Source: Rhodanobacter sp. DHB23 (GTDB taxonomy: Bacteria > Pseudomonadota > Gammaproteobacteria > Xanthomonadales > Rhodanobacteraceae). Taken from it: a DNA stretch of 64,000 nt. The position numbers and the translations under genes are program-made. Under the pieces are notes generated by a model that saw nothing but the letters and a program-made list of their open reading frames with translations, was not told where the DNA came from and ran no database searches. This document shows positions 50,855 through 61,282 of this stretch, one piece after another (the stretch's first letter is position 1; every line of letters begins with the position of its first letter). Location of the stretch: assembly GCF_014842975.1 (NCBI RefSeq), contig NZ_JACYXK010000028.1, forward strand, positions 124,001 through 188,000, written 5' to 3'.

Positions 50855-51082
50855 TACGCCGCTGGCGCTTGGTGCTTTCGGCTATGTGCAGAGGGACATT
50901 GCATGCGGTATCCGGGGGTGCCAAGACAGCCCGCTACGATCAGGGGGAAGCCTTCCTCTGTCCCTTCTCGTCGATGTGTTCGGAAAAAGTACCCGATTGA
51001 GGGCAGCGCAGTGGCAACGCCATGTCCATCATCTGATGCTGCCCCGCCGTCGCAGCGGGTATGCAAGACAGGGACGCTAACG

Positions 51083-51988
51083 ATGCACCACGGTGCTTAT
51101 GGCCAACGATTAGCACGATCGTTCCACCTCGACGATCCGCCTACGCTACTCGGCTCCACCGGTGGCGGCTGTGTTCTGGCAGTGACCGAATTGCGTCTGG
51201 ACGAATCCGGTTGCGGCATGACCGCGCCGCTTGGTAGCGACGATGCCTACCTGGTCGGCCTGCAACTGCGTCGCCTGCAACGGCATGAACTATGGCTGGA
51301 CGGCTGCCCGGTGGCGACTCGCCCAACTGCCGAAGGCACGAGCTGCTTCTACGACCTGCAACGCAATCCGGTGGCTTGGCTCGACGAACCGTTTCACTCG
51401 CTGCAGTTCTACATGCCGAGGGCCGCTCTGGCCGAGGCGGCGGATGAAATGGGCCAGACGGTCAGTGATCTCATCTGCGAGCCTGGCGAATTCGTCGATG
51501 ACGCGGTGATCAACGGCCTCGGGCAATGCCTGCTGCCGCTGATGGGCGATCGAACGCAGGGCAACCGGTTGTTCGTGGACCATGTGCTGCTGGCACTGCG
51601 CGGGCATCTTCTGGTCACGTATGGTGGAGTTCGCTGTGCCGAGACGATTGCCCGTGGCGGGTTGACACCGTGGCAGCAGCGGCGGGCGACCGAGCTGATG
51701 CGCGAGCACGTTGTGGAAGGCATCGCGCTGGCCGATGTGGCGCGTGCCTGCCGGTTGTCGTCGAGCGCGTTCGTGCGTGCGTTCAAGAAGAGCATGGGCG
51801 TGCCGCCACACCAGTGGCTGTTGATGCGCCGGATCGACCGCGCGATCGACCTGATGCGTGATCGCTCCGTGCAACTGGCAGATGTGGCGTTGTCGGCCGG
51901 GTTTGCCGACCAGAGCCATTTCACCCGCATCTTCGCGCGAAAAATGGGCGTCAGCCCCGGTGTCTGGCGCAACACCTGCTGCGAATGA
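51083..51988 (+). CDS. AraC-family transcriptional regulator (copy 2 of the duplicated module)
   Basis: 301 residues. It opens with HHGAYGQRLARSFHLDDPP, parallel to GRGAYGDQLGETFRLQEPP in copy 1. The effector region has RHELWLDGCPV and FYMPRAALAEA; the C-terminal part reads DVARACRLSSSAFVRAFKKS, GVPPHQWLLM and GFADQSHFTRIFARKMG. The start at 51083 matches the shared N-terminus; an upstream in-frame extension of 60 residues has no family resemblance. It converges on the LuxR-type gene with an 8-base gap. Confidence 0.92.
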   Translation: MHHGAYGQRLARSFHLDDPPTLLGSTGGGCVLAVTELRLDESGCGMTAPLGSDDAYLVGLQLRRLQRHELWLDGCPVATRPTAEGTSCFYDLQRNPVAWLDEPFHSLQFYMPRAALAEAADEMGQTVSDLICEPGEFVDDAVINGLGQCLLPLMGDRTQGNRLFVDHVLLALRGHLLVTYGGVRCAETIARGGLTPWQQRRATELMREHVVEGIALADVARACRLSSSAFVRAFKKSMGVPPHQWLLMRRIDRAIDLMRDRSVQLADVALSAGFADQSHFTRIFARKMGVSPGVWRNTCCE

Positions 51989-51996
51989 TCGGAGAC

Positions 51997-52617
51997 TCAG
52001 GAGCCAAGGAAGCCGCGGCGTATCGCGATGGTCACTGCATGCGTGCGGTCTTCTGCGTCGAGCTTGGCCATCAGGCTTTTCATGCGCGCCTTGACTGTAT
52101 CCTCGGACACACATAAAGCCTCGCCGATGGCGCGGTTTCCCTTGCCCTCGGCAACCAGTCTGAGCACGCTCAGTTCGCGCACGGTCAGGCTTTCACTGCC
52201 GCGATATGAATCGATCTCCCGCGCCACCTCCGTCGCCACCACCTGGCGACCTTGCGCAGCACTGCGGATCGCTTTGAGGATCTCGCCGCGGCAAGCGGTC
52301 TTCAGTAGGTACGAGGTGGCGCCAAGGGTTATCGCGCGGGTGACTCGCGCATCGCCGGGATAGGTGGTCAGCACCACGATGCAGGCATGCGGAAAGTCCT
52401 TGCGGATCGCGGTGATCGCCTGCAGTCCGTCCACGTGCGGCATCTGCAAGTCGAGAAGGGTCACGTCCGGAAGCAGCTCTCGGTAGCGCGCTATCGCCTC
52501 GGCACCGTCAGCGGCTTCGCCCACCACCTGCAGGTCGTTCTCCTGATCGATCGCGGCGCGCAGGCCGTCGCGCATCACCGGATGATCGTCGGCGATGAGG
52601 ATTCGGATGAGTGCCAT
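51997..52617 (-). CDS. NarL/FixJ-type response regulator
   Basis: 206 residues. The receiver domain has ADDHPVMRDGL and the phospho-acceptor Asp in TLLDLQMPHVDG; the C-terminal LuxR helix-turn-helix reads LTVRELSVLRLVAEGKGNRA and VSEDTVKARMKSLMAKL. The start MALIRIL was chosen because the receiver begins directly after it. The likely partner is the large kinase encoded divergently at 53235-56234. Confidence 0.93.
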   Translation of the reverse strand: MALIRILIADDHPVMRDGLRAAIDQENDLQVVGEAADGAEAIARYRELLPDVTLLDLQMPHVDGLQAITAIRKDFPHACIVVLTTYPGDARVTRAITLGATSYLLKTACRGEILKAIRSAAQGRQVVATEVAREIDSYRGSESLTVRELSVLRLVAEGKGNRAIGEALCVSEDTVKARMKSLMAKLDAEDRTHAVTIAIRRGFLGS

Positions 52618-52764
52618 GGTGCGGTCCACTTGACTTGTCCATGTTGCTGCTGGCTTTGCGCCGGCGACCGGCTCTTGCCGCTGCTGGGCCACCGACCAAG
52701 GTAGGCAATATCCTCGTCGGACATGATGCTGCTCAATACCCGAATGGGTAACTTGGCTGGGTGT

Positions 52765-52905
52765 TCAGTCGCGGCCGAAACGGTGGTTAGCCGTCGCGTA
52801 CATGGCCTGACCGTAGGCGCAGTAATCAAGCATGTTGATGGCGCGGTGGTCGTGCTTGGATAGCCGTGATCGACCGGCGGCGTCGCGCCGAACAGGCGTC
52901 GCCAT
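52765..52905 (-). CDS. Possible 46-residue protein of unknown function
   Basis: In the 617-base gap between the response regulator and the kinase, a short leftward frame with ATG at 52905 encodes a basic N-terminus followed by HRAINMLDYCAYGQAMYATA and ending FGRD. Its codons are strongly GC-ending and its composition looks natural. There is no strong ribosome-binding site and no family I recognise. It may be a small protein or the 3' relic of a longer gene. Nothing else in 52618-53234 is supported. Confidence 0.3.
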   Translation of the reverse strand: MATPVRRDAAGRSRLSKHDHRAINMLDYCAYGQAMYATANHRFGRD

Positions 52906-53234
52906 GCACTGGCATCCGCAGAGTCGTAGCTGCGCATCACGGCTTCATCGTTCCCCGTTCGTTTCGCTTCCGATGCCTGCGGCTCGCTGCGTTTGCAGCG
53001 CTGTACGAAGTGTGAATTCCACGAGTCGGCGGTCGAGACTATCGATGCGCTGCACGCTTGCCTTGAACAAAAACACCAAGTGTGGAACGAGCTGATTGAT
53101 CGTGTCTTCCGCACTGGTACAGAGACTGGTCAAACAGTAATGCTCGCGCGTCGTGGGTTGTCCGCGTCGTGTGCGGTACGGGCTTCATTCTATGGATCGA
53201 CATGTCTGTTCCAGTCGCTGAGGGTTGAATCGAG

Positions 53235-56234
53235 ATGTGTCATAGGTACCTGGCGGGTCGTTTCCGCTGGTGGGTCGTCCGAGTTCTCACGGTTTGCATC
53301 GTCATGGCGGCTGCGGATTCACCCATACACGCGGCTGTCCCGATGAGTTCCGCGGCGGAGGCCATTGGGTCGCTCTCGCTTTCCCAGCTCCGCCATCGCG
53401 TCTACACCTCGGTCGACGGCGCACCGGATCAGGTCACCGTGCTGGCACAGACCAGCGACGGTTTCCTTTGGCTGGGGTCGCCGACCGGGTTGGCCCGTTT
53501 CGACGGTGCCGCGTTCGACGCCAGTTTCGGCAGGCTTTTGCCCAGCCCCAACGTGCACGCCCTGTTCTCCGACGGCGAAGATCTGTGGATCGGCTATGCG
53601 TACGGCGGCGTCAGCCGCCTGCGTGGGGGACAGATTGCCAACTACGACGCGGCCAGCATTCCGATCGGAGGCATCGATTCGTTTGCGCGGAGCCTGGATG
53701 GCGTGCTGTGGGTCGCCGGCAGCAAGGGCTTGGCGAAGCTTGTCGGCGGGCGCTGGCTGCGCGTTGGCGCCGAAATCGGACTTCCGGATCAAAACATCAT
53801 CTGGATGGCACAGACCGACGGCACGTTGTGGGTCATGGGCGACCGAGGTGCGTATGCGCTGGCGCCGGGGGCGAACCGTTTCATTCCGATGGATCGTGAC
53901 CGGCTCTATCGCGCACGGATGCATGTGCCGGCGAGTGTGGTGCGGCAATTCAAGCTGCCGAGTTTGAGCAATCGCAGCATGTTGATCGATGGGGCGGGTG
54001 ACCTGTGGATGCGTGGCGAAAAGGGCGTGACGCGTTATCGCTGGTCACGGACGTCCGATCAGGTCGTGGTCGAAAACATGACATCCGCGCAAGGCCTCAG
54101 CAGCGATTCCGTGCCCGCGCTGCTGCAGGATCGCGAAGGTAACATGTGGCTAGGCACTGCCCGCGGGCTGGACGAGTTCAGTGCGCCCAGGTTCACCCGG
54201 CTCGATCTGCCTGGACGGTTCGAGGTGCCGTCGTTCGCGCTGGCTGCCGATGGCTCTCTCTGGGCAGGCAGCCTGTGGCAAGGCGTGTTGCGTGTGAATC
54301 AAGGCCGGGTCTCGACCACGCGATTGGGCAAGGATGTCTGGTGCATCCTGGTCGACAACCACGGCGGCATCTGGGCCAGCGGTGACGACAAGTTGCGATA
54401 CTGGCTGGATGGCAAGCTAAGTCAGATTCCCTTGCCGCCTGCACTGGCAACGTTGAGTGCGAATGACATCAGCGGCCTGTTCCAGGCGATGGCCGTGGAT
54501 CGGCAGGGTGGCCTGTGGCTATCGGTGGCCAAGTACGATCTCTACTACCTCGCACATGGCCGATGGACTTTGCGGGGTGGCCTTGGGCAGTTGCCGACCA
54601 TGCCGCCAATTCGCCTGCTTGCCGACGATGCCGGCCGCATGTGGTTCACCTATCCCGATAACCGCATTGCGGTACTCGACCACGGCAAACTGCAGGTCTA
54701 CACCAAAGCCAATGGACTAGCCGTGGGGAATGTGCAGGCGATCCACGTGCGCGGTGCGCAGGTCTGGGTGGGGGGCGATCTGGGCGTGGCCCATCTCGAG
54801 TATGGCCGCTTCGCAACGCTGCGCGGTGTCCATGGCGAGACGTTCGGCGGCACGGCTGGCCTGGTCGAAACCGCGGCCGGTGAGCTGTGGATCGACGGTG
54901 CGGCCGGGGTATACCGGATTTCGGCCGCCGAGGTGACACGCGTGCGTGCGGATCCGACCCGTCCAGTGGGATTCGAACTGTTCAATCAGCAGGATGGCTT
55001 GGCCGGTCCGGCCTTGCAGATCCGCCCGGGGCCTACCATGCAGCTGGGTAGGGACGGGCGCTTGTGGGTTGCCCGGTTCGGCGGCATTTCCTGGATCGAT
55101 CCGGAGCACGTGCGGCGCAATCGCATCGCTCCCGTCGTGTCGATCCAGTCGCTGCACGCTGCAGGCGTTGCCTATCCGCTTGCGGCTGGGCTGGTGTTGC
55201 CGAAGCTGACTCGCAGCCTTCACTTCGACTACACCGCGCCATCGCTCTCAATGCCGCAGCGTGTGCGTTTCCGCTATCAGCTCGAAGGTGTCGATGCCGG
55301 TTGGCAGGATGCGGGTATGCGGCGGCAGGCGTTCTATACCAACCTTGGCCCAGGTAGCTACCGCTTTCGCGTGCGTGCCGCGAACGCCGACGGAGTGGAA
55401 AGTGCTTACGACGCCACGTTCGATTTCCGCATCGCGCCGGCGTTCTATCAGACCTGGTGGTTCGGAGTGCTGTGCGGCTGCCTGGTGCTGGGGACGCTGT
55501 GGCTGCTATACCTGCTGCGCCTGCGACAGCTGGCGGTGCACGATCGCATCCGCGGCGCGGAGCGCGAACGCATTGCGCGTGACCTGCACGATACCTTGCT
55601 GCAGGGCATCCAGGGCCTGCAATTGCATCTGCAGACCTGGGCCGCGGACATGTCGCTGGCTCCGCACCGCCGCGACGAGATGGGTCGAGTGGCCATGCGC
55701 ACACGCGACATGCTGATCGACGGTCGCGACCGCATCATCGCGCTGCGCCGCTCCGGCGTTACGGACGGCGGACTGGTCGCAGCACTACGTGCAAGTGGCG
55801 AGGACTACGCCTCGATGTACCCGGCGTGCTTCGCACTGCACGAGGATGGCGAGCCGCGCATGCTGCGGCCCGAGGCTGCCAACGAAGCACTCGACATCAT
55901 GCGTGAAGGCTTGCGCAATGCCTTCGTCCATGCCGCTGCCGGCTGTATCGAGCTGGCCGTCGTATGGCAGAACGGTGGCTTGTGTCTGCGCGTCAGCGAC
56001 GATGGCCGAGGTATTGACGAGGCCGTCTTGCGCACGGGCGGACGCGCCGGACATTGGGGTCTGCCCGGCATGCGCGAACGTGCGGCACGGGTCGGTGCTC
56101 AATTCGATCTGTATCAGCGCGAAGGCGGTGGAACCATGTTGTCGCTGTGGTTGCCGGCACGCGGCACATTCGCCGACACTCGTGCGCGCCTGCTTCGAGG
56201 CTTGCAGCGCGCATGGAAAGTGCCTGCCGAATGA
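53235..56234 (+). CDS. Two-component regulator propeller-type sensor histidine kinase
   Basis: 999 residues. A signal/TM segment at about 13-34 leads into a periplasmic beta-propeller sensor with repeated DG.LW.G units (DGFLWLGSPTGLARFDG, DGTLWVMGDRG), then a Y_Y_Y-type domain (FRYQLEGVDAGWQ). A TM lies at about 740-760. The cytoplasmic HisKA_3 domain has its histidine near residue 785 (RDLHDTLLQGIQG), and the ATPase domain has EGLRNAFVHAA and GHWGLPGMRERA. It resembles hybrid-free propeller kinases sensing carbohydrates or other extracellular signals. The nearby NarL-type regulator is the likely partner. Confidence 0.93.
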   Translation: MCHRYLAGRFRWWVVRVLTVCIVMAAADSPIHAAVPMSSAAEAIGSLSLSQLRHRVYTSVDGAPDQVTVLAQTSDGFLWLGSPTGLARFDGAAFDASFGRLLPSPNVHALFSDGEDLWIGYAYGGVSRLRGGQIANYDAASIPIGGIDSFARSLDGVLWVAGSKGLAKLVGGRWLRVGAEIGLPDQNIIWMAQTDGTLWVMGDRGAYALAPGANRFIPMDRDRLYRARMHVPASVVRQFKLPSLSNRSMLIDGAGDLWMRGEKGVTRYRWSRTSDQVVVENMTSAQGLSSDSVPALLQDREGNMWLGTARGLDEFSAPRFTRLDLPGRFEVPSFALAADGSLWAGSLWQGVLRVNQGRVSTTRLGKDVWCILVDNHGGIWASGDDKLRYWLDGKLSQIPLPPALATLSANDISGLFQAMAVDRQGGLWLSVAKYDLYYLAHGRWTLRGGLGQLPTMPPIRLLADDAGRMWFTYPDNRIAVLDHGKLQVYTKANGLAVGNVQAIHVRGAQVWVGGDLGVAHLEYGRFATLRGVHGETFGGTAGLVETAAGELWIDGAAGVYRISAAEVTRVRADPTRPVGFELFNQQDGLAGPALQIRPGPTMQLGRDGRLWVARFGGISWIDPEHVRRNRIAPVVSIQSLHAAGVAYPLAAGLVLPKLTRSLHFDYTAPSLSMPQRVRFRYQLEGVDAGWQDAGMRRQAFYTNLGPGSYRFRVRAANADGVESAYDATFDFRIAPAFYQTWWFGVLCGCLVLGTLWLLYLLRLRQLAVHDRIRGAERERIARDLHDTLLQGIQGLQLHLQTWAADMSLAPHRRDEMGRVAMRTRDMLIDGRDRIIALRRSGVTDGGLVAALRASGEDYASMYPACFALHEDGEPRMLRPEAANEALDIMREGLRNAFVHAAAGCIELAVVWQNGGLCLRVSDDGRGIDEAVLRTGGRAGHWGLPGMRERAARVGAQFDLYQREGGGTMLSLWLPARGTFADTRARLLRGLQRAWKVPAE

Positions 56235-56237
56235 CAG

Positions 56238-56753
56238 CTACGTTGCCAGCAGCAAACGCAGGCGGGCGAGCGCCTCCGCGCCGGGGAGTGCATCAGCAAA
56301 ATGCCCCAAGCAGCTACCATCCGCATCGAACAGGTAGGCGATGGCGGTGTGCGGGACGCGGTAGCCGAGCGGATCATCGGGGTCACTGACGCGTCTGGCG
56401 AACACGCCGAACGCGGCCTTGGTTCGTTCGATTTGTTCGACGCTGCCGGTCAGGCCGGTAAAACGCGGGTGCGGTGCAAGAAAGTCGCGCATGACCTGCG
56501 GGGTATCGCGCGCGGGATCCACGCTGATGTACAGGCCACGTATCAACATTCCCTCGGCGGCCAGCTGGTCAAGCATGGCGGAGTACCGAGTCAGCGCCCG
56601 TGGACAGACCACGCGGCAATGGGTGAAGCCGAACAGTACCAGCGCAGATTGGCCCCGCCAGTCGGCTGCGGATACCGGCTGGCCGAAGTGGTCGGTCAAC
56701 TCAAGCTCGCTTCCGGAAGGCAGTCGCGGTCGGTCTGGCTTGGCAGACATCAT
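56238..56753 (-). CDS. SCO1/SenC-like protein without membrane anchor
   Basis: 171 residues, thioredoxin fold. The Cu-binding/redox motif C46-RVV-C50-P and H135 (YRVPHTAIAYLFDADG) are all present, as in SCO copper chaperones or thiol reductases. Typical SCO proteins have an N-terminal membrane anchor or signal; here the chain starts MMSAKPDRPRLPSG, so it should stay in the cytoplasm. Its start overlaps the stop of the linalool-dehydratase-like gene (ATGA), so it is made with that enzyme. Confidence 0.88.
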   Translation of the reverse strand: MMSAKPDRPRLPSGSELELTDHFGQPVSAADWRGQSALVLFGFTHCRVVCPRALTRYSAMLDQLAAEGMLIRGLYISVDPARDTPQVMRDFLAPHPRFTGLTGSVEQIERTKAAFGVFARRVSDPDDPLGYRVPHTAIAYLFDADGSCLGHFADALPGAEALARLRLLLAT

Positions 56754-58318
56754 GGCGACGATCCGTCGGCATGGTCGTTTGCGAACATCAGGCGCATCGA
56801 CTGAACGCGGTTACCCGTCCATCGCAACTCGAGTCCTGTATCAGTGTGGCGCAGCAACACCGAGCCGATGATATTCAGTTCGACCGCATCGCCATAAGCC
56901 ACGATCTGCGACTCGAACAACAGCGTCCAGCGGCCGCAACCATTGATGCGGCCGAGAATTATCCATGCTTCGCACGATGGACTGAGACCGCGCGCCTGGA
57001 GTGTGAACAGCAGTGAGTGGCTGGCGGGTTCAAAGCGCGCCAACAGCACATCGACACCCGTGCCGACCTCGACGATGGCCGGTTCCTTGAAATGGTCGCG
57101 ATCCCACGGCCCGCGGTAGATGCCCTGCAGGCCATCGCGCACGTTGAGTCGCGCATAGCCGAGTAGCACGTTGCCGGTCATCGGCTCGACCAAGGTGCGG
57201 TGCCCTGCGGCGTCTTCGGCGACGTCGTTGCGCGGATAGTAGAGACCACCGTCGCGCCAGCGCGGTGCCATGTAGCGATCGGCGTGACGCAGCAGGCCAT
57301 GCAGGGTTTCCTCGTCACCCATTTCCGACGCCCACGCTGCGACCCAGCCGAAATCGGAGTCATCGTTCAACACGACGTGTCCCTTGATCGGTGGACGCGG
57401 TGCCGATTTCACGGACAGCGTGCCGTCCGGCCCGGGCAGAAGCAGATCAGCCAACTGCCGCGGGTAATGCGCGCGCACGAAGTCACCGTTCCACATGTTC
57501 ATCATCGCGCCGCACCAGGCATCGACCCACGGCGCCTGCGCCAAGTTGGGCCGAATGGTCCGAGTGTCCTCCGACAGCATGACGTGGTAGTGGCCGTTGT
57601 CGCCGAGTCGGCCGAATTCCGCCCAGGCCTGTTCGTAGCCGCGCGTCACTTCCTGTGCCCGCTCGCCGCCGGTGAGCAGATCGTGCATGCGGAATCCGAG
57701 GATCGCCGGCTGGTTGCAGATCTGGAAGATGCAGTTCGGTTCGCATGCCACGCCGAGGTAGCCACTTTCGACCATCTTCCAGTACAGATGCTCGTTGAGT
57801 GAGTTCTGGTCGTACTTGAACTGGTGCCCGTCGCCACCCCAGAAGTAGGACCAATGCTCGAACGCGAGCGCGCCGGGACGAGCGTAGCGGTCGTCGTCGA
57901 ACAGCACGTTGTAGAGCAAGGTCAGCGACTGCACGTAGGCGCTGTACATGATGTTGTCGCGCGCTACCGGATCCCATTCCTCTTGGTAGCGCTCGCTGAG
58001 GTGCGCATTGAAGATGCTTCCGCCGCGGCTGACGTCTCGCCAGTACAGCCATACTTCGGGCAGTAGCAGCTTTGCGATCAGCCGCTCGAATATCGGCTTG
58101 AACACACCGGGCGCCGCAGGCAGGCGATGCACGTGCGTGATCGCCAGCGCATACGCCATGTAGGCAAGCTGGAAACGATACGCGCCGAAATCGTCCTGGC
58201 CGGTACCGCGACCTTTCATCAGCGTCCAGTCATTAGGCTGGAGCAGCGAAAGGTTTTCGATATGGCGAAGGTGGCCCACCTGCTGTGGGTCAAGAGGTTC
58301 TAGAGTGTGGTGGCGCAT
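56750..58318 (-). CDS. Linalool dehydratase/isomerase-like protein
   Basis: 522 residues. The core pattern (NIMYSAYVQSLTLLYNVLFD, GDGHQFKYDQNSLNEHLYWK, GVACEPNCIFQICNQPAI, GDNGHYHVML) resembles the Ldi family of Castellaniella defragrans. Cysteines C192 and C201 have the same nine-residue spacing as the catalytic C171 and C180 of that enzyme. An alpha/alpha toroid is expected. Unlike the reference enzyme no signal peptide is present. The preceding alcohol dehydrogenase gene (16-base gap) fits a route between tertiary or allylic alcohols and aldehydes. True substrate unknown. Confidence 0.75.
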   Translation of the reverse strand: MRHHTLEPLDPQQVGHLRHIENLSLLQPNDWTLMKGRGTGQDDFGAYRFQLAYMAYALAITHVHRLPAAPGVFKPIFERLIAKLLLPEVWLYWRDVSRGGSIFNAHLSERYQEEWDPVARDNIMYSAYVQSLTLLYNVLFDDDRYARPGALAFEHWSYFWGGDGHQFKYDQNSLNEHLYWKMVESGYLGVACEPNCIFQICNQPAILGFRMHDLLTGGERAQEVTRGYEQAWAEFGRLGDNGHYHVMLSEDTRTIRPNLAQAPWVDAWCGAMMNMWNGDFVRAHYPRQLADLLLPGPDGTLSVKSAPRPPIKGHVVLNDDSDFGWVAAWASEMGDEETLHGLLRHADRYMAPRWRDGGLYYPRNDVAEDAAGHRTLVEPMTGNVLLGYARLNVRDGLQGIYRGPWDRDHFKEPAIVEVGTGVDVLLARFEPASHSLLFTLQARGLSPSCEAWIILGRINGCGRWTLLFESQIVAYGDAVELNIIGSVLLRHTDTGLELRWTGNRVQSMRLMFANDHADGSSP

Positions 58319-58334
58319 GGCGATATAGGCCGGG

Positions 58335-59438
58335 TTAGTGTTGCATTTCCAGCACGGCCTTGATGGTCTTGCCGCTGAGTTGATCGGCGACCGCCTGATT
58401 GATGTCGTTGAACGGATAGCTGGTGATCAGCCGGTCGAACGGGAAACGTCCCTGCAGATACAGGTCGACCAACTGCGGAATGAAGATGTCGGGGATCGAA
58501 TTGCCCTCGACGTAACCCTGCACGGACTGCCCGGCCAGCAGCAGGTTGAACCACGGCAGTTCCAGCGCCTTGCCGGCCGACGACGGCACCGCGACCAGCG
58601 CCAGCTGGCCGCGAATCGCTAGCCCACCAAGGGCGTTACCGATCAGTGCAGCCACGCCGGCGGCATCGACGATGGCGTCCACGCCATGCGGTGCGATCGC
58701 GCGGATGGCTGCGCTCAGGTCGTCCACCGAACGGGTATTGATGAGGTGGGTGGCGCCGAGGCTGCGCGCGATGTCCAGACGCGACTCCACCAGGTCGATC
58801 GCGATCAGCGTGGCACAGCCGCAGACCTGTGCGGCCATGATCGCGGCAAGACCTACCGCCCCCATGCCGAGCACGGCGATTGAAGAGCCGGCCTGTGGCC
58901 GGATGCCGTTCATCACCGTGCCGGCGCCGGTCTGGATGCCGCAGCCGAGCGGGCCGAGCAGCTTGATCGGCACATCCTTGCGGACTTTCACGGTGTTCCG
59001 TTCGTTGGCCAGCGCATAGTGAGCGAACGAAGACTGGCCGAAGTATTTCAGATGCGCCTCGCCATGCGTGCGTTTGGCACGCCGCCCATGTGGGTCAGTC
59101 TGGAAATTGAGCGCGGCGAAGTTGTCGCAATACATCGGCTGGCCACTGACACACTGTGGACAGGTGCCGTCGAAAGCCGGAGCCAGCACCACGTGGTCGC
59201 CCGGCGCCACCTTGCATACGCGTCGCCCGACCTGCACCACGACGCCCGCGCCTTCATGTCCGAGGACGGTGGGGAACGGTGCGTCGACGATACCGTCCTT
59301 GCTGGCCAGGTCGGTGTGGCAGATGCCGACACCGGCAATCTCGACCAGCACCTCATCGTCATCGGGCTCGGGCAGGTCGATGTACTCCAGCGCGAACGGC
59401 TCTTTCAATGCATCGACCACGGCTGCGAGGCTTTTCAT
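58335..59438 (-). CDS. Zn-dependent alcohol dehydrogenase, aryl/allylic-alcohol type
   Basis: 367 residues. Catalytic zinc ligands lie in GICHTDL, GHEGAG and GCGIQTGAG; the structural zinc site has CPQCVSGQPMYC with the first cysteine replaced by Asp. The NAD-binding motif is LGMGAVGLAAIMAAQV. It belongs to the branch with benzyl-alcohol and geraniol dehydrogenases. Together with the Ldi-like enzyme it suggests oxidation of an allylic terpene alcohol (inference). An AGGTGG site precedes the ATG. Confidence 0.9.
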   Translation of the reverse strand: MKSLAAVVDALKEPFALEYIDLPEPDDDEVLVEIAGVGICHTDLASKDGIVDAPFPTVLGHEGAGVVVQVGRRVCKVAPGDHVVLAPAFDGTCPQCVSGQPMYCDNFAALNFQTDPHGRRAKRTHGEAHLKYFGQSSFAHYALANERNTVKVRKDVPIKLLGPLGCGIQTGAGTVMNGIRPQAGSSIAVLGMGAVGLAAIMAAQVCGCATLIAIDLVESRLDIARSLGATHLINTRSVDDLSAAIRAIAPHGVDAIVDAAGVAALIGNALGGLAIRGQLALVAVPSSAGKALELPWFNLLLAGQSVQGYVEGNSIPDIFIPQLVDLYLQGRFPFDRLITSYPFNDINQAVADQLSGKTIKAVLEMQH

Positions 59439-59478
59439 GGTGTTCCACCTGTGACGAAAGAAAGGGGTGCGGAAAAGC

Positions 59479-59946
59479 TCACGCCAGCGTGAGCACGATC
59501 AGGATGCCGCCACCGATGGCCACGGCATCCTCGGCCAGCACAGCGAACAGATCCCTGCCGCCGAAGTGGAGGGCCAACGAATGTCGGGAGCGGTAGCAGA
59601 CCAGGGTGCCGATGACGGCACCGCATGCACCGATGATCGCGCCCAACCACAGGTTGCCGTGGGCACCCATCAATGTGGCGCCCGACCATGCGCCAGCGAC
59701 TACCCGCGTGGCGAATTGCACGGGAATCTTTCGGCTCGGCGTCGTCGGCAGCTTGTCGTTGGCCAACTCGACCAACGCCAGCAGGGTGAGAATCCAAGGG
59801 GTGTACGCGTAGCCCATGAACGCCAGCGGCGTGTCATGCAGCGGCAGCCAGTCGAGCCACGCAGCCCAACTCGCCAGCGCCGGTGCGGTCATCGCACGCA
59901 GACCGGCGATCACGCCAATGAACAGGACCATCAAGCCAATAAGCAT
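59479..59946 (-). CDS. DUF4126 membrane protein
   Basis: 155 residues with about four TM segments. GLRAMTAPALASWAAW at the start, LANDKLPTTPSRK in the middle and GGRDLFAVLAEDAVAIGGGI at the end are typical of DUF4126. Function is unknown. A GAGGAG site precedes the ATG. It lies between wrbA and the alcohol dehydrogenase with about 40-base gaps on both sides, so it is part of the operon. Confidence 0.88.
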   Translation of the reverse strand: MLIGLMVLFIGVIAGLRAMTAPALASWAAWLDWLPLHDTPLAFMGYAYTPWILTLLALVELANDKLPTTPSRKIPVQFATRVVAGAWSGATLMGAHGNLWLGAIIGACGAVIGTLVCYRSRHSLALHFGGRDLFAVLAEDAVAIGGGILIVLTLA

Positions 59947-59987
59947 GTCCGGCTCCTCGTCGAATGCGTAAGGCCGCCGATCACGTT

Positions 59988-60587
59988 TCAGCCGTGTAGC
60001 GCGATTGCGGTATTCGCGACCAGCTCGCCTTGGTGACGCGCGCCAGCCAACTCGATCACGCTGGGTTGGCGCGAGCCGTCGCCACCGGCGATCGTGGTGG
60101 CACCGTAGGGCGAACCGCCGACGATCTCGTCCAATGTCATCTGGCCTTGGTGGCTGTAGGGCAGGCCGACCACGACCATGCCGAAGTGCAGCAGGTTGGC
60201 GATGAGCGAGAACAGCGTCATTTCCTGGCCGCCATGCTGTGTTGCGGTGGAGGTAAACGCAGCGCCGACCTTGCCGTGCAGTGCGCCGCGAGCCCACAGC
60301 CCGCCGGCTTGGTCGAGGAAGGCCGCCATCTGTGAGGACACGCGGCCGAAGCGGGTACCGGTGCCGATGACGATGGCATCGTAGTTTTCCAACTCGGCAA
60401 TGGTCGCCAGCGGTGCTGACTGGTCGAGTTTGAAGTGGTTGTTCCTGGCGATTTCCGTGGGCACCGTTTCCGGCACACGTCGGATATCCACCGTAGCTCC
60501 TGCGATACGCGCACCCTCGGCCACGGCTTCGGCCATTTTCTCGACGTGGCCGTAGGTGGAGTAGTAGAGAACCAGAACCTTGGCCAT
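59988..60587 (-). CDS. wrbA: NAD(P)H:quinone oxidoreductase, WrbA type
   Basis: 199 residues, flavodoxin-like fold. FMN phosphate binding is by [36 protein letters not shown] and [16 protein letters not shown] are the WrbA signatures. The enzyme reduces quinones by two electrons. It is the first gene of the operon running through DUF4126, alcohol dehydrogenase, the Ldi-like enzyme and the SCO-like protein. Confidence 0.95.
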
Positions 60588-60871: not shown

Positions 60872-61282
60872 ATGAGTATTCGACATGTGGTACTCGCCAT
60901 TGCGCTGACGGCACTGGCGATCGCGATGCCGGTCGCGGCAGCGGCGCACGAAACCGTCACGCCGGCATTCGCCCACGCGATCCCCAACGTACCCGGCAAG
61001 ACCATCACCGCGCTGGTGGTGACCTACAAGCCTGGCGGTACTTCGTTGGCACATCGGCATGGCGCGGCTTTCGTGGTCGCCTACGTGCTCAGCGGAGCGA
61101 TCCGCAGTCAGCTGGAAGGAGGCGAGTCGAAGGTTTACCACGCCGGCGAAAGTTGGACCGAGGCGCCCGGTGCACACCATCTGGTCAGCGACAACGCCAG
61201 TCAGACCGAACCCGCCACGTTGCTGGCCATCTTCATTGCCGATAGCAACGACAAGAAGCTGGTGACGTACGACAAGCCATGA
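60872..61282 (+). CDS. Secreted cupin-domain protein
   Basis: 136 residues. A signal peptide ends near residue 24 (PVAAAAHE). The cupin core has SLAHRHGAAFVVAYVLSGAI and GESWTEAPGAHHLVSDNAS with the expected histidines for metal binding in the periplasm. A GGAGGT site lies ten bases before the ATG. It is divergent from wrbA across 284 bases without a gene. Confidence 0.9.
   Translation: MSIRHVVLAIALTALAIAMPVAAAAHETVTPAFAHAIPNVPGKTITALVVTYKPGGTSLAHRHGAAFVVAYVLSGAIRSQLEGGESKVYHAGESWTEAPGAHHLVSDNASQTEPATLLAIFIADSNDKKLVTYDKP

What the first reader, a model, noticed from the sequence alone, without database searches (positions are those of the whole stretch)
56238..60587. Operon with a linalool dehydratase/isomerase-like enzyme and an allylic alcohol dehydrogenase
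Five leftward genes (wrbA, DUF4126, Zn-alcohol dehydrogenase, Ldi-like, SCO-like) are spaced by 41, 40, 16 and -4 bases. Ldi of Castellaniella defragrans links linalool, myrcene and geraniol, and geraniol dehydrogenase acts next in that pathway. The Ldi-like protein keeps two cysteines at the nine-residue spacing of C171/C180. A terpenoid-alcohol pathway in an aerobic Xanthomonadales-type genome, with a quinone reductase and an unknown membrane protein, would be new to me.
Basis: partly seen in the sequence, partly recalled or inferred. Interest (0 to 1): 0.8.

Follow-up and report, generated by a model that had tools for sequence, protein, structure and literature searches.

The report
Linalool-dehydratase relative paired with anchorless SCO
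A soil-type bacterium carries a relative of the enzyme that interconverts linalool, myrcene and geraniol; its branch of the family has an extra cysteine at the active site and travels with a small thiol/copper protein that seems to have moved inside the cell, which suggests a dedicated helper that keeps the enzyme working in air.

Summary
Observation confirmed: five leftward genes with the stated spacings and a full-length Ldi domain (372.8 bits). The enzyme is in the Ldi family but is not a Castellaniella-type Ldi: no signal peptide, no C48-C101 disulfide, Tyr for His128; C170, E171 and C179 are kept. It falls in a clade (100/99) found in Rhodanobacter, grapevine Agrobacterium plasmids, Variovorax, a family of another proteobacterial class and, deepest, Rhodococcus. 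All 13 clade loci read have a third cysteine, CEP[N/Y]CxxxxC; 0 of 32 other Ldi-family loci do. Eleven of the 13 come with a SCO gene (ten adjacent). Ten of these SCOs form one clade (100/99) without the N-terminal anchor that all 19 compared unlinked SCOs have. Best reading: a cytosolic allylic-alcohol dehydratase/isomerase whose catalytic thiols a dedicated cytosolic SCO keeps reduced, feeding the ADH and a nearby ALDH. Substrate and SCO role are inferred; the structure model failed; no second acyl-CoA carboxylase for the Atu route was found. Known family, new variant.

The parts
56750..58318 (-). Ldi-family enzyme, 522 aa, soluble by sequence; motif C192-E193-P-N-C196-x4-C201; part after about residue 413 predicted all-beta
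   Evidence: Pfam PF18566 372.8 bits; C192, E193, C201 invariant in 17 aligned members; no hydrophobic N-terminus; model mean pLDDT only 45.3, block means 58-85 over residues 411-510
56238..56753 (-). SCO-family protein without signal or membrane anchor, 171 aa; C46xxxC50 and H135
   Evidence: Pfam SCO1-SenC 126.9 bits; closest solved chain Blr1131 (4wbj) E 1.3e-25; C46, C50, H135 invariant in 8 aligned linked SCOs; no hydrophobic N-terminus
58335..59438 (-). Zn-dependent alcohol dehydrogenase of the benzyl-alcohol-dehydrogenase type, 367 aa
   Evidence: 5tnx 348 bits, 1f8f 339 bits, next best 173 bits; GHE and CxxCx7C motifs present (meaning as zinc sites recalled)
59479..59946 (-). DUF4126 protein, 155 aa, probably in the membrane (by eye), role unknown
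   Evidence: Pfam DUF4126 34.8 bits, cut-off 27.5; 58-63% identical homologs in L007, L010, L035
59988..60587 (-). WrbA-type NAD(P)H:quinone oxidoreductase, 199 aa
   Evidence: TIGR01755 302.9 bits and PRK03767 327.5 bits, both above cut-off; kept in L007, L010, L035; not seen in its place in R. fulvus L069
53235..56234 (+). Neighbour, convergent: Reg_prop/Y_Y_Y sensor histidine kinase; link to the operon not shown
   Evidence: Pfam hits; a homolog (36-62% identical) keeps this place in L007-L010
51997..52692 (-). LuxR-type response regulator beside the kinase; link to the operon not shown
   Evidence: Response_reg 89.6 bits, GerE 57.5 bits
61565..62521 (+). Neighbour: MDR/quinone-oxidoreductase-like protein
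   Evidence: ADH_N, ADH_zinc_N_2; homologs near the operon in L007 (86%) and L010 (78%)
60872..61282 (+). Neighbour: small cupin with a hydrophobic N-terminus (by eye)
   Evidence: Cupin_2 48.6 bits; homologs near the operon in L008, L010, L035, L070

Best explanation
This is the Rhodanobacteraceae form of a third architectural type of Ldi-family enzyme: not exported like Castellaniella Ldi, not carrying the transmembrane part of Thauera Lis, but soluble and cytosolic. It most likely removes or moves the hydroxyl of an allylic (tertiary/primary) alcohol by acid-base catalysis with the C192/E193/C201 set. Because these thiols are easily oxidised in an aerobe, and both studied relatives need or were assayed with reductants, a dedicated SCO that has lost its export signal keeps them reduced through its own CxxxC; the extra C196, which makes a CxxxC at the catalytic cysteine, would be the point of contact. 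The primary alcohol so made is oxidised by the neighbouring benzyl-type ADH and then by the aldehyde dehydrogenase of the same island; WrbA and OsmC fit protection against reactive products. Shown: family membership, motif, absence of signals, gene linkage, clade structure. Inferred: reaction, substrate class, SCO-to-enzyme reduction, order of steps.
For: Ldi domain full length; profile to 5hlr E 1.5e-55. C192/E193/C201 invariant in 17 of 17. The C101 equivalent is Leu86 and there is no Cys before residue 192, so the periplasmic capping disulfide cannot form. CEP[NY]C in 13 of 13 clade loci read, 0 of 32 other family loci; clade 100/99. SCO adjacent in 10 of the 13 and at the other end of a same-strand gene run in Variovorax; also adjacent in 7 of 7 Agrobacterium/Allorhizobium records by coordinates. 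Ten linked SCOs form one clade 100/99, none with an N-terminal anchor, against 15 of 15 unlinked SCOs over 70 bits in the sampled genomes and 4 of 4 plasmid ones. Papers: C170 and C179 must be reduced, C48-C101 oxidised, DTT needed for full activity (PMC6600392, parts 1-2 of 6); Lis tested and assayed with dithionite/DTT (PMC4791888, PMC4847356, passages); Sco proteins are membrane-anchored and can act as thiol-disulfide oxidoreductases (PMC9145763, PMC6696091, passages). ADH type; ALDH, OmpW, OsmC, AraC upstream.
Against: His128 is Tyr and Tyr65 is Phe; Asp38 and Tyr44 lie before the aligned stretch; the structure model failed (mean pLDDT 45.3), so the catalytic shell and the place of C196 are unknown. 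Rhodococcus BG43 has CEPNC but no SCO within about 9 kb and looks exported. One of two G1356 copies has no SCO within about 8 kb. ADH is not beside the enzyme in the Rhizobiaceae, G868, G1486 or G1356 loci as far as read, and in Variovorax only a 24%-identical ADH-like gene is present. No CoA ligase was seen among the neighbours scanned and the genome has one full-length carboxyltransferase. Clade loci include close relatives, so counts are not independent.
Confidence: 0.42

Rival explanations
1. Detoxification rather than catabolism: the enzyme turns toxic terpenoid or related alcohols into less toxic alkenes or isomers, and ADH/ALDH/WrbA/OsmC clear the aldehyde and quinone side products; in other hosts an efflux pump does the rest.
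For: RND adaptor and permease genes follow the Ldi-SCO pair on the Agrobacterium and Allorhizobium plasmids read, and an RND-like permease precedes an Ldi relative in G488 (named by eye). TetR genes sit beside the enzyme or its SCO in those plasmids and Variovorax and, by eye, in G868 and G1486. The Ldi papers discuss a defence role (PMC6600392 part 1; PMC4791888 section on Lis identification). No Atu-type second carboxylase.
Against: ADH plus ALDH plus OmpW plus an AraC regulator look catabolic; no efflux pump among the window neighbours scanned.
Confidence: 0.28
2. The SCO partner is a copper chaperone: it loads copper into the CEPNC...C site, making this clade a copper-dependent or copper-switched Ldi.
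For: The CxxxC of this clade (13 of 13 against 0 of 32) has the spacing of the CuA cysteines that Sco serves in cytochrome oxidase subunit II (spacing recalled); Sco binds copper through CysXXXCysXnHis (PMC6696091, passage), and H135 is kept in the eight aligned.
Against: Castellaniella Ldi was most likely purified cofactor-free (PMC6600392, part 2). No copper-handling gene other than SCO among the neighbours scanned. Rhodococcus BG43 has CEPNC without a nearby SCO.
Confidence: 0.1
3. The SCO is a general antioxidant passenger, and the Ldi-like protein has drifted to a non-terpenoid substrate such as an aryl or lignin-derived alcohol.
For: ADH and ALDH are closest to benzyl alcohol and 4-hydroxybenzaldehyde dehydrogenases; WrbA and OsmC nearby; His128 and Tyr65 changed; SCO weakly matches AhpC-TSA, below its cut-off.
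Against: One SCO clade goes with one Ldi clade in four host groups with otherwise different neighbours, which fits a dedicated partner better than a passenger.
Confidence: 0.2

Closest known systems
[quoted passage not shown] PDB 5hlr, 5g1u, 5i3t, 7ad2
   Same: Same Pfam family over the whole domain; C170, E171, C179, M124, N122 and W105 kept; an alcohol dehydrogenase encoded in the same region.
   Different: Periplasmic with an essential C48-C101 disulfide there; no signal and no such cysteines here; H128 to Y, Y65 to F, N174 to C; 522 aa with an added C-terminal part; encoded with SCO.
Linalool isomerase (Lis, EC 5.4.4.4) of Thauera linaloolentis 47Lol
   Same: Ldi-like domain predicted in the cytoplasm; activity assayed with reductants; geraniol dehydrogenase in its pathway (PMC4791888, PMC4847356, passages).
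   Different: Lis has four predicted N-terminal transmembrane helices; this protein has none. Membrane-anchored relatives found here mostly read CEPNW. The Thauera sequence itself was not available to align.
SCO/SenC proteins, nearest solved Blr1131 (4wbj, 4txo; ScoI of Bradyrhizobium by recall)
   Same: Family profile score, CxxxC and the distant His kept.
   Different: No signal or anchor; motif C[R/Q/A]VVCPR or CRKVCPR instead of CPDVCP/CPDICP; encoded with an Ldi-like enzyme.
Benzyl alcohol dehydrogenase (PDB 1f8f) and geraniol dehydrogenase GeoA
   Same: 1f8f is among the two closest solved ADHs; GeoA is described as an allyl-alcohol dehydrogenase (PMC4109377, passage).
   Different: Substrate untested; GeoA sequence not compared here.

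Membership tests
Ldi family (Pfam PF18566) | Score above the curated cut-off over the full domain | tested here: met
   372.8 bits against 26.1; profile 1-316 of 318
Ldi family (Pfam PF18566) | Catalytic Cys pair (C170, C179) and adjacent Glu | tested here: met
   C192, E193, C201; invariant in 17 aligned members
Castellaniella-type Ldi (EC 4.2.1.127) | Active-site His128 | tested here: not met
   Tyr128; His only in L023, L029, L034 of 17 rows
Castellaniella-type Ldi (EC 4.2.1.127) | Active-site Asp38 and Tyr44 | tested here: inconclusive
   Profile alignment starts at chain residue 50; model too poor to superpose
Castellaniella-type Ldi (EC 4.2.1.127) | Signal peptide and C48-C101 disulfide | tested here: not met
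   No hydrophobic N-terminus; first Cys is residue 192, C101 aligns to Leu86
Castellaniella-type Ldi (EC 4.2.1.127) | Myrcene/linalool/geraniol turnover; pentamer | not testable with these tools
   needs purified protein
Lis (membrane-anchored linalool isomerase) | N-terminal transmembrane part before the Ldi domain | tested here: not met
   Highest 19-residue hydropathy of the N-terminal extension -0.27; membrane-type relatives L025, L027 and L024 reach 2.66, 2.69 and 1.65
SCO/SenC (PF02630) | Family score; CxxxC and distant His | tested here: met
   126.9 bits against 22.8; C46, C50, H135
SCO/SenC (PF02630) | Membrane or lipid anchor outside the cytoplasm | tested here: not met
   None in ten linked SCOs; present in 15 of 15 unlinked ones over 70 bits and 4 of 4 plasmid ones
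Acyclic terpene utilisation (Atu) route after geraniol | Geranyl-CoA carboxylase in addition to methylcrotonyl-CoA carboxylase | tested here: not met
   One full-length Carboxyl_trans place (544.9 bits) plus two partial ones in the own genome; which carboxylase it is was not determined
Geraniol dehydrogenase GeoA | Orthology or activity on geraniol | not tested
   Only the class is shown: benzyl-alcohol-dehydrogenase type

The most novel reading that the evidence does not exclude
SCO has been recruited into the cytosol as a dedicated maturation or repair partner of a non-respiratory enzyme: it reduces (or loads copper onto) a CxxxC that one Ldi clade carries at its catalytic cysteine, the spacing SCO serves in cytochrome oxidase. 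That would be a new client and compartment for SCO and explain how an oxygen-sensitive thiol hydratase works in aerobes.
Probability: 0.35. Interest if true: 0.8.

Novelty: new variant of a known kind. Interest (0 to 1): 0.6.

Why it matters
Ldi is wanted as a catalyst for adding and removing water at unactivated alkenes, but it is oxygen-sensitive and gave only traces of product when made in the cytosol of E. coli (PMC6600392, parts 1-2). A natural cytosolic clade that lacks the structural disulfide, has a further cysteine at the active site and comes with a small redox-type partner offers a direct test for an air-tolerant system. For copper/redox biology, an anchorless SCO clade tied to a non-oxidase enzyme makes the question whether SCO acts as reductase or copper chaperone testable in a two-protein system.

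Tried and rejected
Structure: AlphaFold2 on five close sequences gave mean pLDDT 45.3, pTM 0.34, so no fold search was run. A deeper alignment was not tried because the tool admits only certain loci; the second job was not used. Reading the enzyme as a Castellaniella-type Ldi was rejected (no signal, no C48/C101, His128 replaced). Reading it as Lis was rejected (no transmembrane part). A complete Atu pathway was tested only by carboxyltransferase count and not found. Promoter and terminator scans gave fewer sites than shuffles. Three plasmid SCO loci among the next-best hits (Roseomonas, NT-25, Haematobacter) hold ordinary anchored SCOs with CPDVCP/CPDICP beside PCu(A)C genes. The R. opacus Ldi relative stands beside a 'cytochrome c oxidase assembly protein' that looks like CtaG by eye, not SCO; not counted as linkage. 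Literature (open-access library only): 'linalool dehydratase' with 'Rhodanobacter' gave 0 papers; linalool/dehydratase-isomerase with SCO terms gave 2, neither with linalool; a search on cytoplasmic/bacterial Sco gave 360, of which the 8 listed showed no such pair; one search gave 7, none on this clade by title and abstract start.

Rows and limits of the counts: the 45 Ldi loci are those fetched with a usable frame. Second copies of the same places (among them L042, L048, L058, L066, L100, L101, L103) were not entered. Five further Agrobacterium plasmid hits and the Aureimonas hit were not fetched, so their motif was not read. L031 and L032 (fragments) are in the motif count but not in the tree. 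Flanks of L043-L065 and L102 are about 1.5 kb or less, so no SCO there means only not adjacent. Of 30 unlinked SCO matches, the 15 over 70 bits were compared; of the 15 weaker ones, four were tried and dropped (three without the motif in the frame picked, one with it at the very start) and eleven were not looked at. Three divergent rows and one of two NT-25 SCOs were left out of the tree. The SCO of L009 is not in that tree.
Full report
OBSERVATION. Pfam and NCBIfam name them WrbA, DUF4126, Zn-ADH, Ldi and SCO. The Ldi domain covers profile positions 1-316 of 318 at 372.8 bits. phmmer to the solved Castellaniella Ldi gives E about 3e-6; a profile of 17 relatives gives 1.5e-55.

ACTIVE SITE. 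C192, E193 and C201 align to C170, E171 and C179 and are invariant in 17 of 17 rows. H128, Y44, D38, C179 and C170 are named as key residues contacting substrates (PMC12455561, passage); exchange of any of the four cysteines inactivates Ldi, with C48-C101 oxidised and C170/C179 reduced (PMC6600392, parts 1 and 2 of 6 read). Here H128 is Tyr, Y65 (active-site by recall) is Phe, C101 is Leu86, and there is no cysteine before residue 192. D38 and Y44 fall outside the aligned stretch. The only structure model was poor, so the full catalytic shell is neither confirmed nor refuted.

WHERE IT ACTS. The N-terminus is not hydrophobic (highest 19-residue window -0.27), as in the nine other soluble members measured (at most 0.27); membrane-type relatives L025, L027 and L024 reach 2.66, 2.69 and 1.65, and the Rhodococcus member reaches 1.61 with an RR-containing, lipobox-like start (signal type read by eye). 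So there are at least three architectures: exported Ldi, membrane-anchored Lis, and this soluble form.

DISTRIBUTION. The gene is rare and patchy: Ldi-family matches in 1 of 15 genomes of the own genus, 5 of 233 of the family sample in 2 of 26 genera, 6 of 369 of the class sample and 3 of 398 of the phylum sample, the own genome counted each time. Close relatives are Rhodanobacter sp. Soil772, R. fulvus, R. spathiphylli and a Rhodanobacter MAG at 79-86% identity. With the window protein as query, 4 of 297 genomes of the order and 4 of 323 of the family of G868 match, and 16 of 36 of the family of G323, the last all weakly. Twelve plasmid records match: Agrobacterium 6, Rhodococcus 2, Variovorax, Allorhizobium, Novosphingobium and Aureimonas 1 each. 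G868, G1356 and G1486 are of one unnamed family in the same phylum but not the same class (probably Alphaproteobacteria; not shown).

THE SCO PARTNER. The enzyme and a SCO gene are neighbours in the five Rhodanobacteraceae genomes, in 7 of 7 Agrobacterium/Allorhizobium records by coordinates (two read in full), in G868 and G1486, and at one of two G1356 copies. In Variovorax, SCO starts a run of same-strand genes (SCO, TetR, TPP enzyme, SDR, ADH-like, five ABC genes, alpha/beta hydrolase) that ends with the Ldi-like gene. Exceptions: the other G1356 copy (no SCO within about 8 kb) and Rhodococcus BG43 (none within about 9 kb). Over the 13 clade loci read the tally is 11 of 13, ten adjacent; over the other 32 family loci 0 of 32 within the flanks held, many of them short. 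A Fisher test on these counts gives 8e-9, but the loci are related, so it is only a guide.

THE SCO IS UNUSUAL. Eight linked SCOs lack an N-terminal hydrophobic segment, and two more do too; all 15 unlinked SCO matches over 70 bits in ten sampled genomes have one, as do four plasmid SCOs. Weaker unlinked matches were not compared. The ten linked SCOs form one clade at 100/99. Their motif reads CRVVCPR, CRKVCPR, CQVVCPR or CAVVCPR; 12 of the 15 comparators read CPDVCP or CPDICP, the other three CDTICP, CAMVCP and CQMVCP. The window genome also has an anchored SCO elsewhere (L037). [quoted passage not shown]

A MATCHING CHANGE IN THE ENZYME. At the position of N174 of Castellaniella Ldi, 13 of 13 clade loci have cysteine (CEPNC, once CEPYC); 0 of 32 other family loci do (mostly CEPNW). 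The clade has 100/99 support in a 43-row tree (the program warns of long branches, among them L023). This puts a CxxxC at the catalytic cysteine. Since Rhodococcus, the deepest member, has the cysteine but no SCO nearby, the cysteine may have come first. Coincidence of two single events cannot be excluded.

PATHWAY CONTEXT. The ADH is closest to 5tnx and benzyl alcohol dehydrogenase 1f8f (348 and 339 bits; next best 173). ADHs 42-45% identical lie near Ldi relatives on two Rhodococcus plasmids; BG43 also has ALDH and an AMP-binding protein in the run. About 8-12 kb upstream, outside the window, lie OsmC, OmpW, an ALDH nearest to 4-hydroxybenzaldehyde dehydrogenase, and an AraC regulator. Homologs of the ALDH and OsmC lie near the operon in three of four other Rhodanobacteraceae genomes (G172, G205, G197); OmpW was matched in G205, the regulator clearly in G172 and more weakly in G205 and G164; for G164 the upstream stretch was only partly read. 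The own genome has one full-length carboxyltransferase match, whereas Thauera uses geranyl-CoA and methylcrotonyl-CoA carboxylases (PMC4847356, passages). So the upper part (isomerise, oxidise twice) is plausible and the lower part unknown.

MECHANISM. Most likely acid-base catalysis on an allylic alcohol, as in Ldi and Lis, with the SCO reducing the active-site thiols. This is inferred from family, motif and linkage. Ldi needs DTT for full activity (PMC6600392 part 1) and Lis was tested with several reductants (PMC4791888, passages), which makes a dedicated reductant reasonable. Detoxification, a copper site, and an aryl-alcohol substrate remain open.

VERDICT. Observation confirmed; interpretation partly supported. 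The family is known; the soluble, SCO-paired, three-cysteine clade is a new variant as far as the searches made here show (open-access library only).

Noticed in passing
window 62982 to beyond the end (L067:983-5004): An AceE-type pyruvate dehydrogenase E1 (1426 bits) followed by a NuoF protein (589 bits) beside the operon, 88% and 93% identical to homologs near the Rhodanobacter sp. Soil772 operon.
   Followed up: partly
L067:6765-10643 (own contig, just outside the window): OsmC, OmpW, aldehyde dehydrogenase and AraC regulator; ALDH and OsmC homologs lie near the operon in three of four other Rhodanobacteraceae genomes.
   Followed up: partly
L029:7935-14003 (G488): An Ldi relative with an N-terminal hydrophobic segment directly beside an RND-like permease (RND named by eye).
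   Followed up: no
L024:7182-10451 (Rhodococcus opacus plasmid): A 734-aa Ldi relative followed by a gene annotated cytochrome c oxidase assembly protein, another copper-type neighbour of an Ldi relative.
   Followed up: no
L023:8848-10548 (Rhodococcus erythropolis BG43 plasmid): The clade member with what looks like a twin-arginine lipoprotein signal, keeping His128, near ALDH, ADH, AMP-binding protein and P450 genes.
   Followed up: partly
family of G323: Ldi relatives are common in this family (16 of 36 genomes, five with two matches); those read mostly show CEPNW.
   Followed up: no
window 50903-56234: AraC regulator, LuxR response regulator and a Reg_prop sensor kinase on the other side of the operon; possible inducers, untested.
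   Followed up: no
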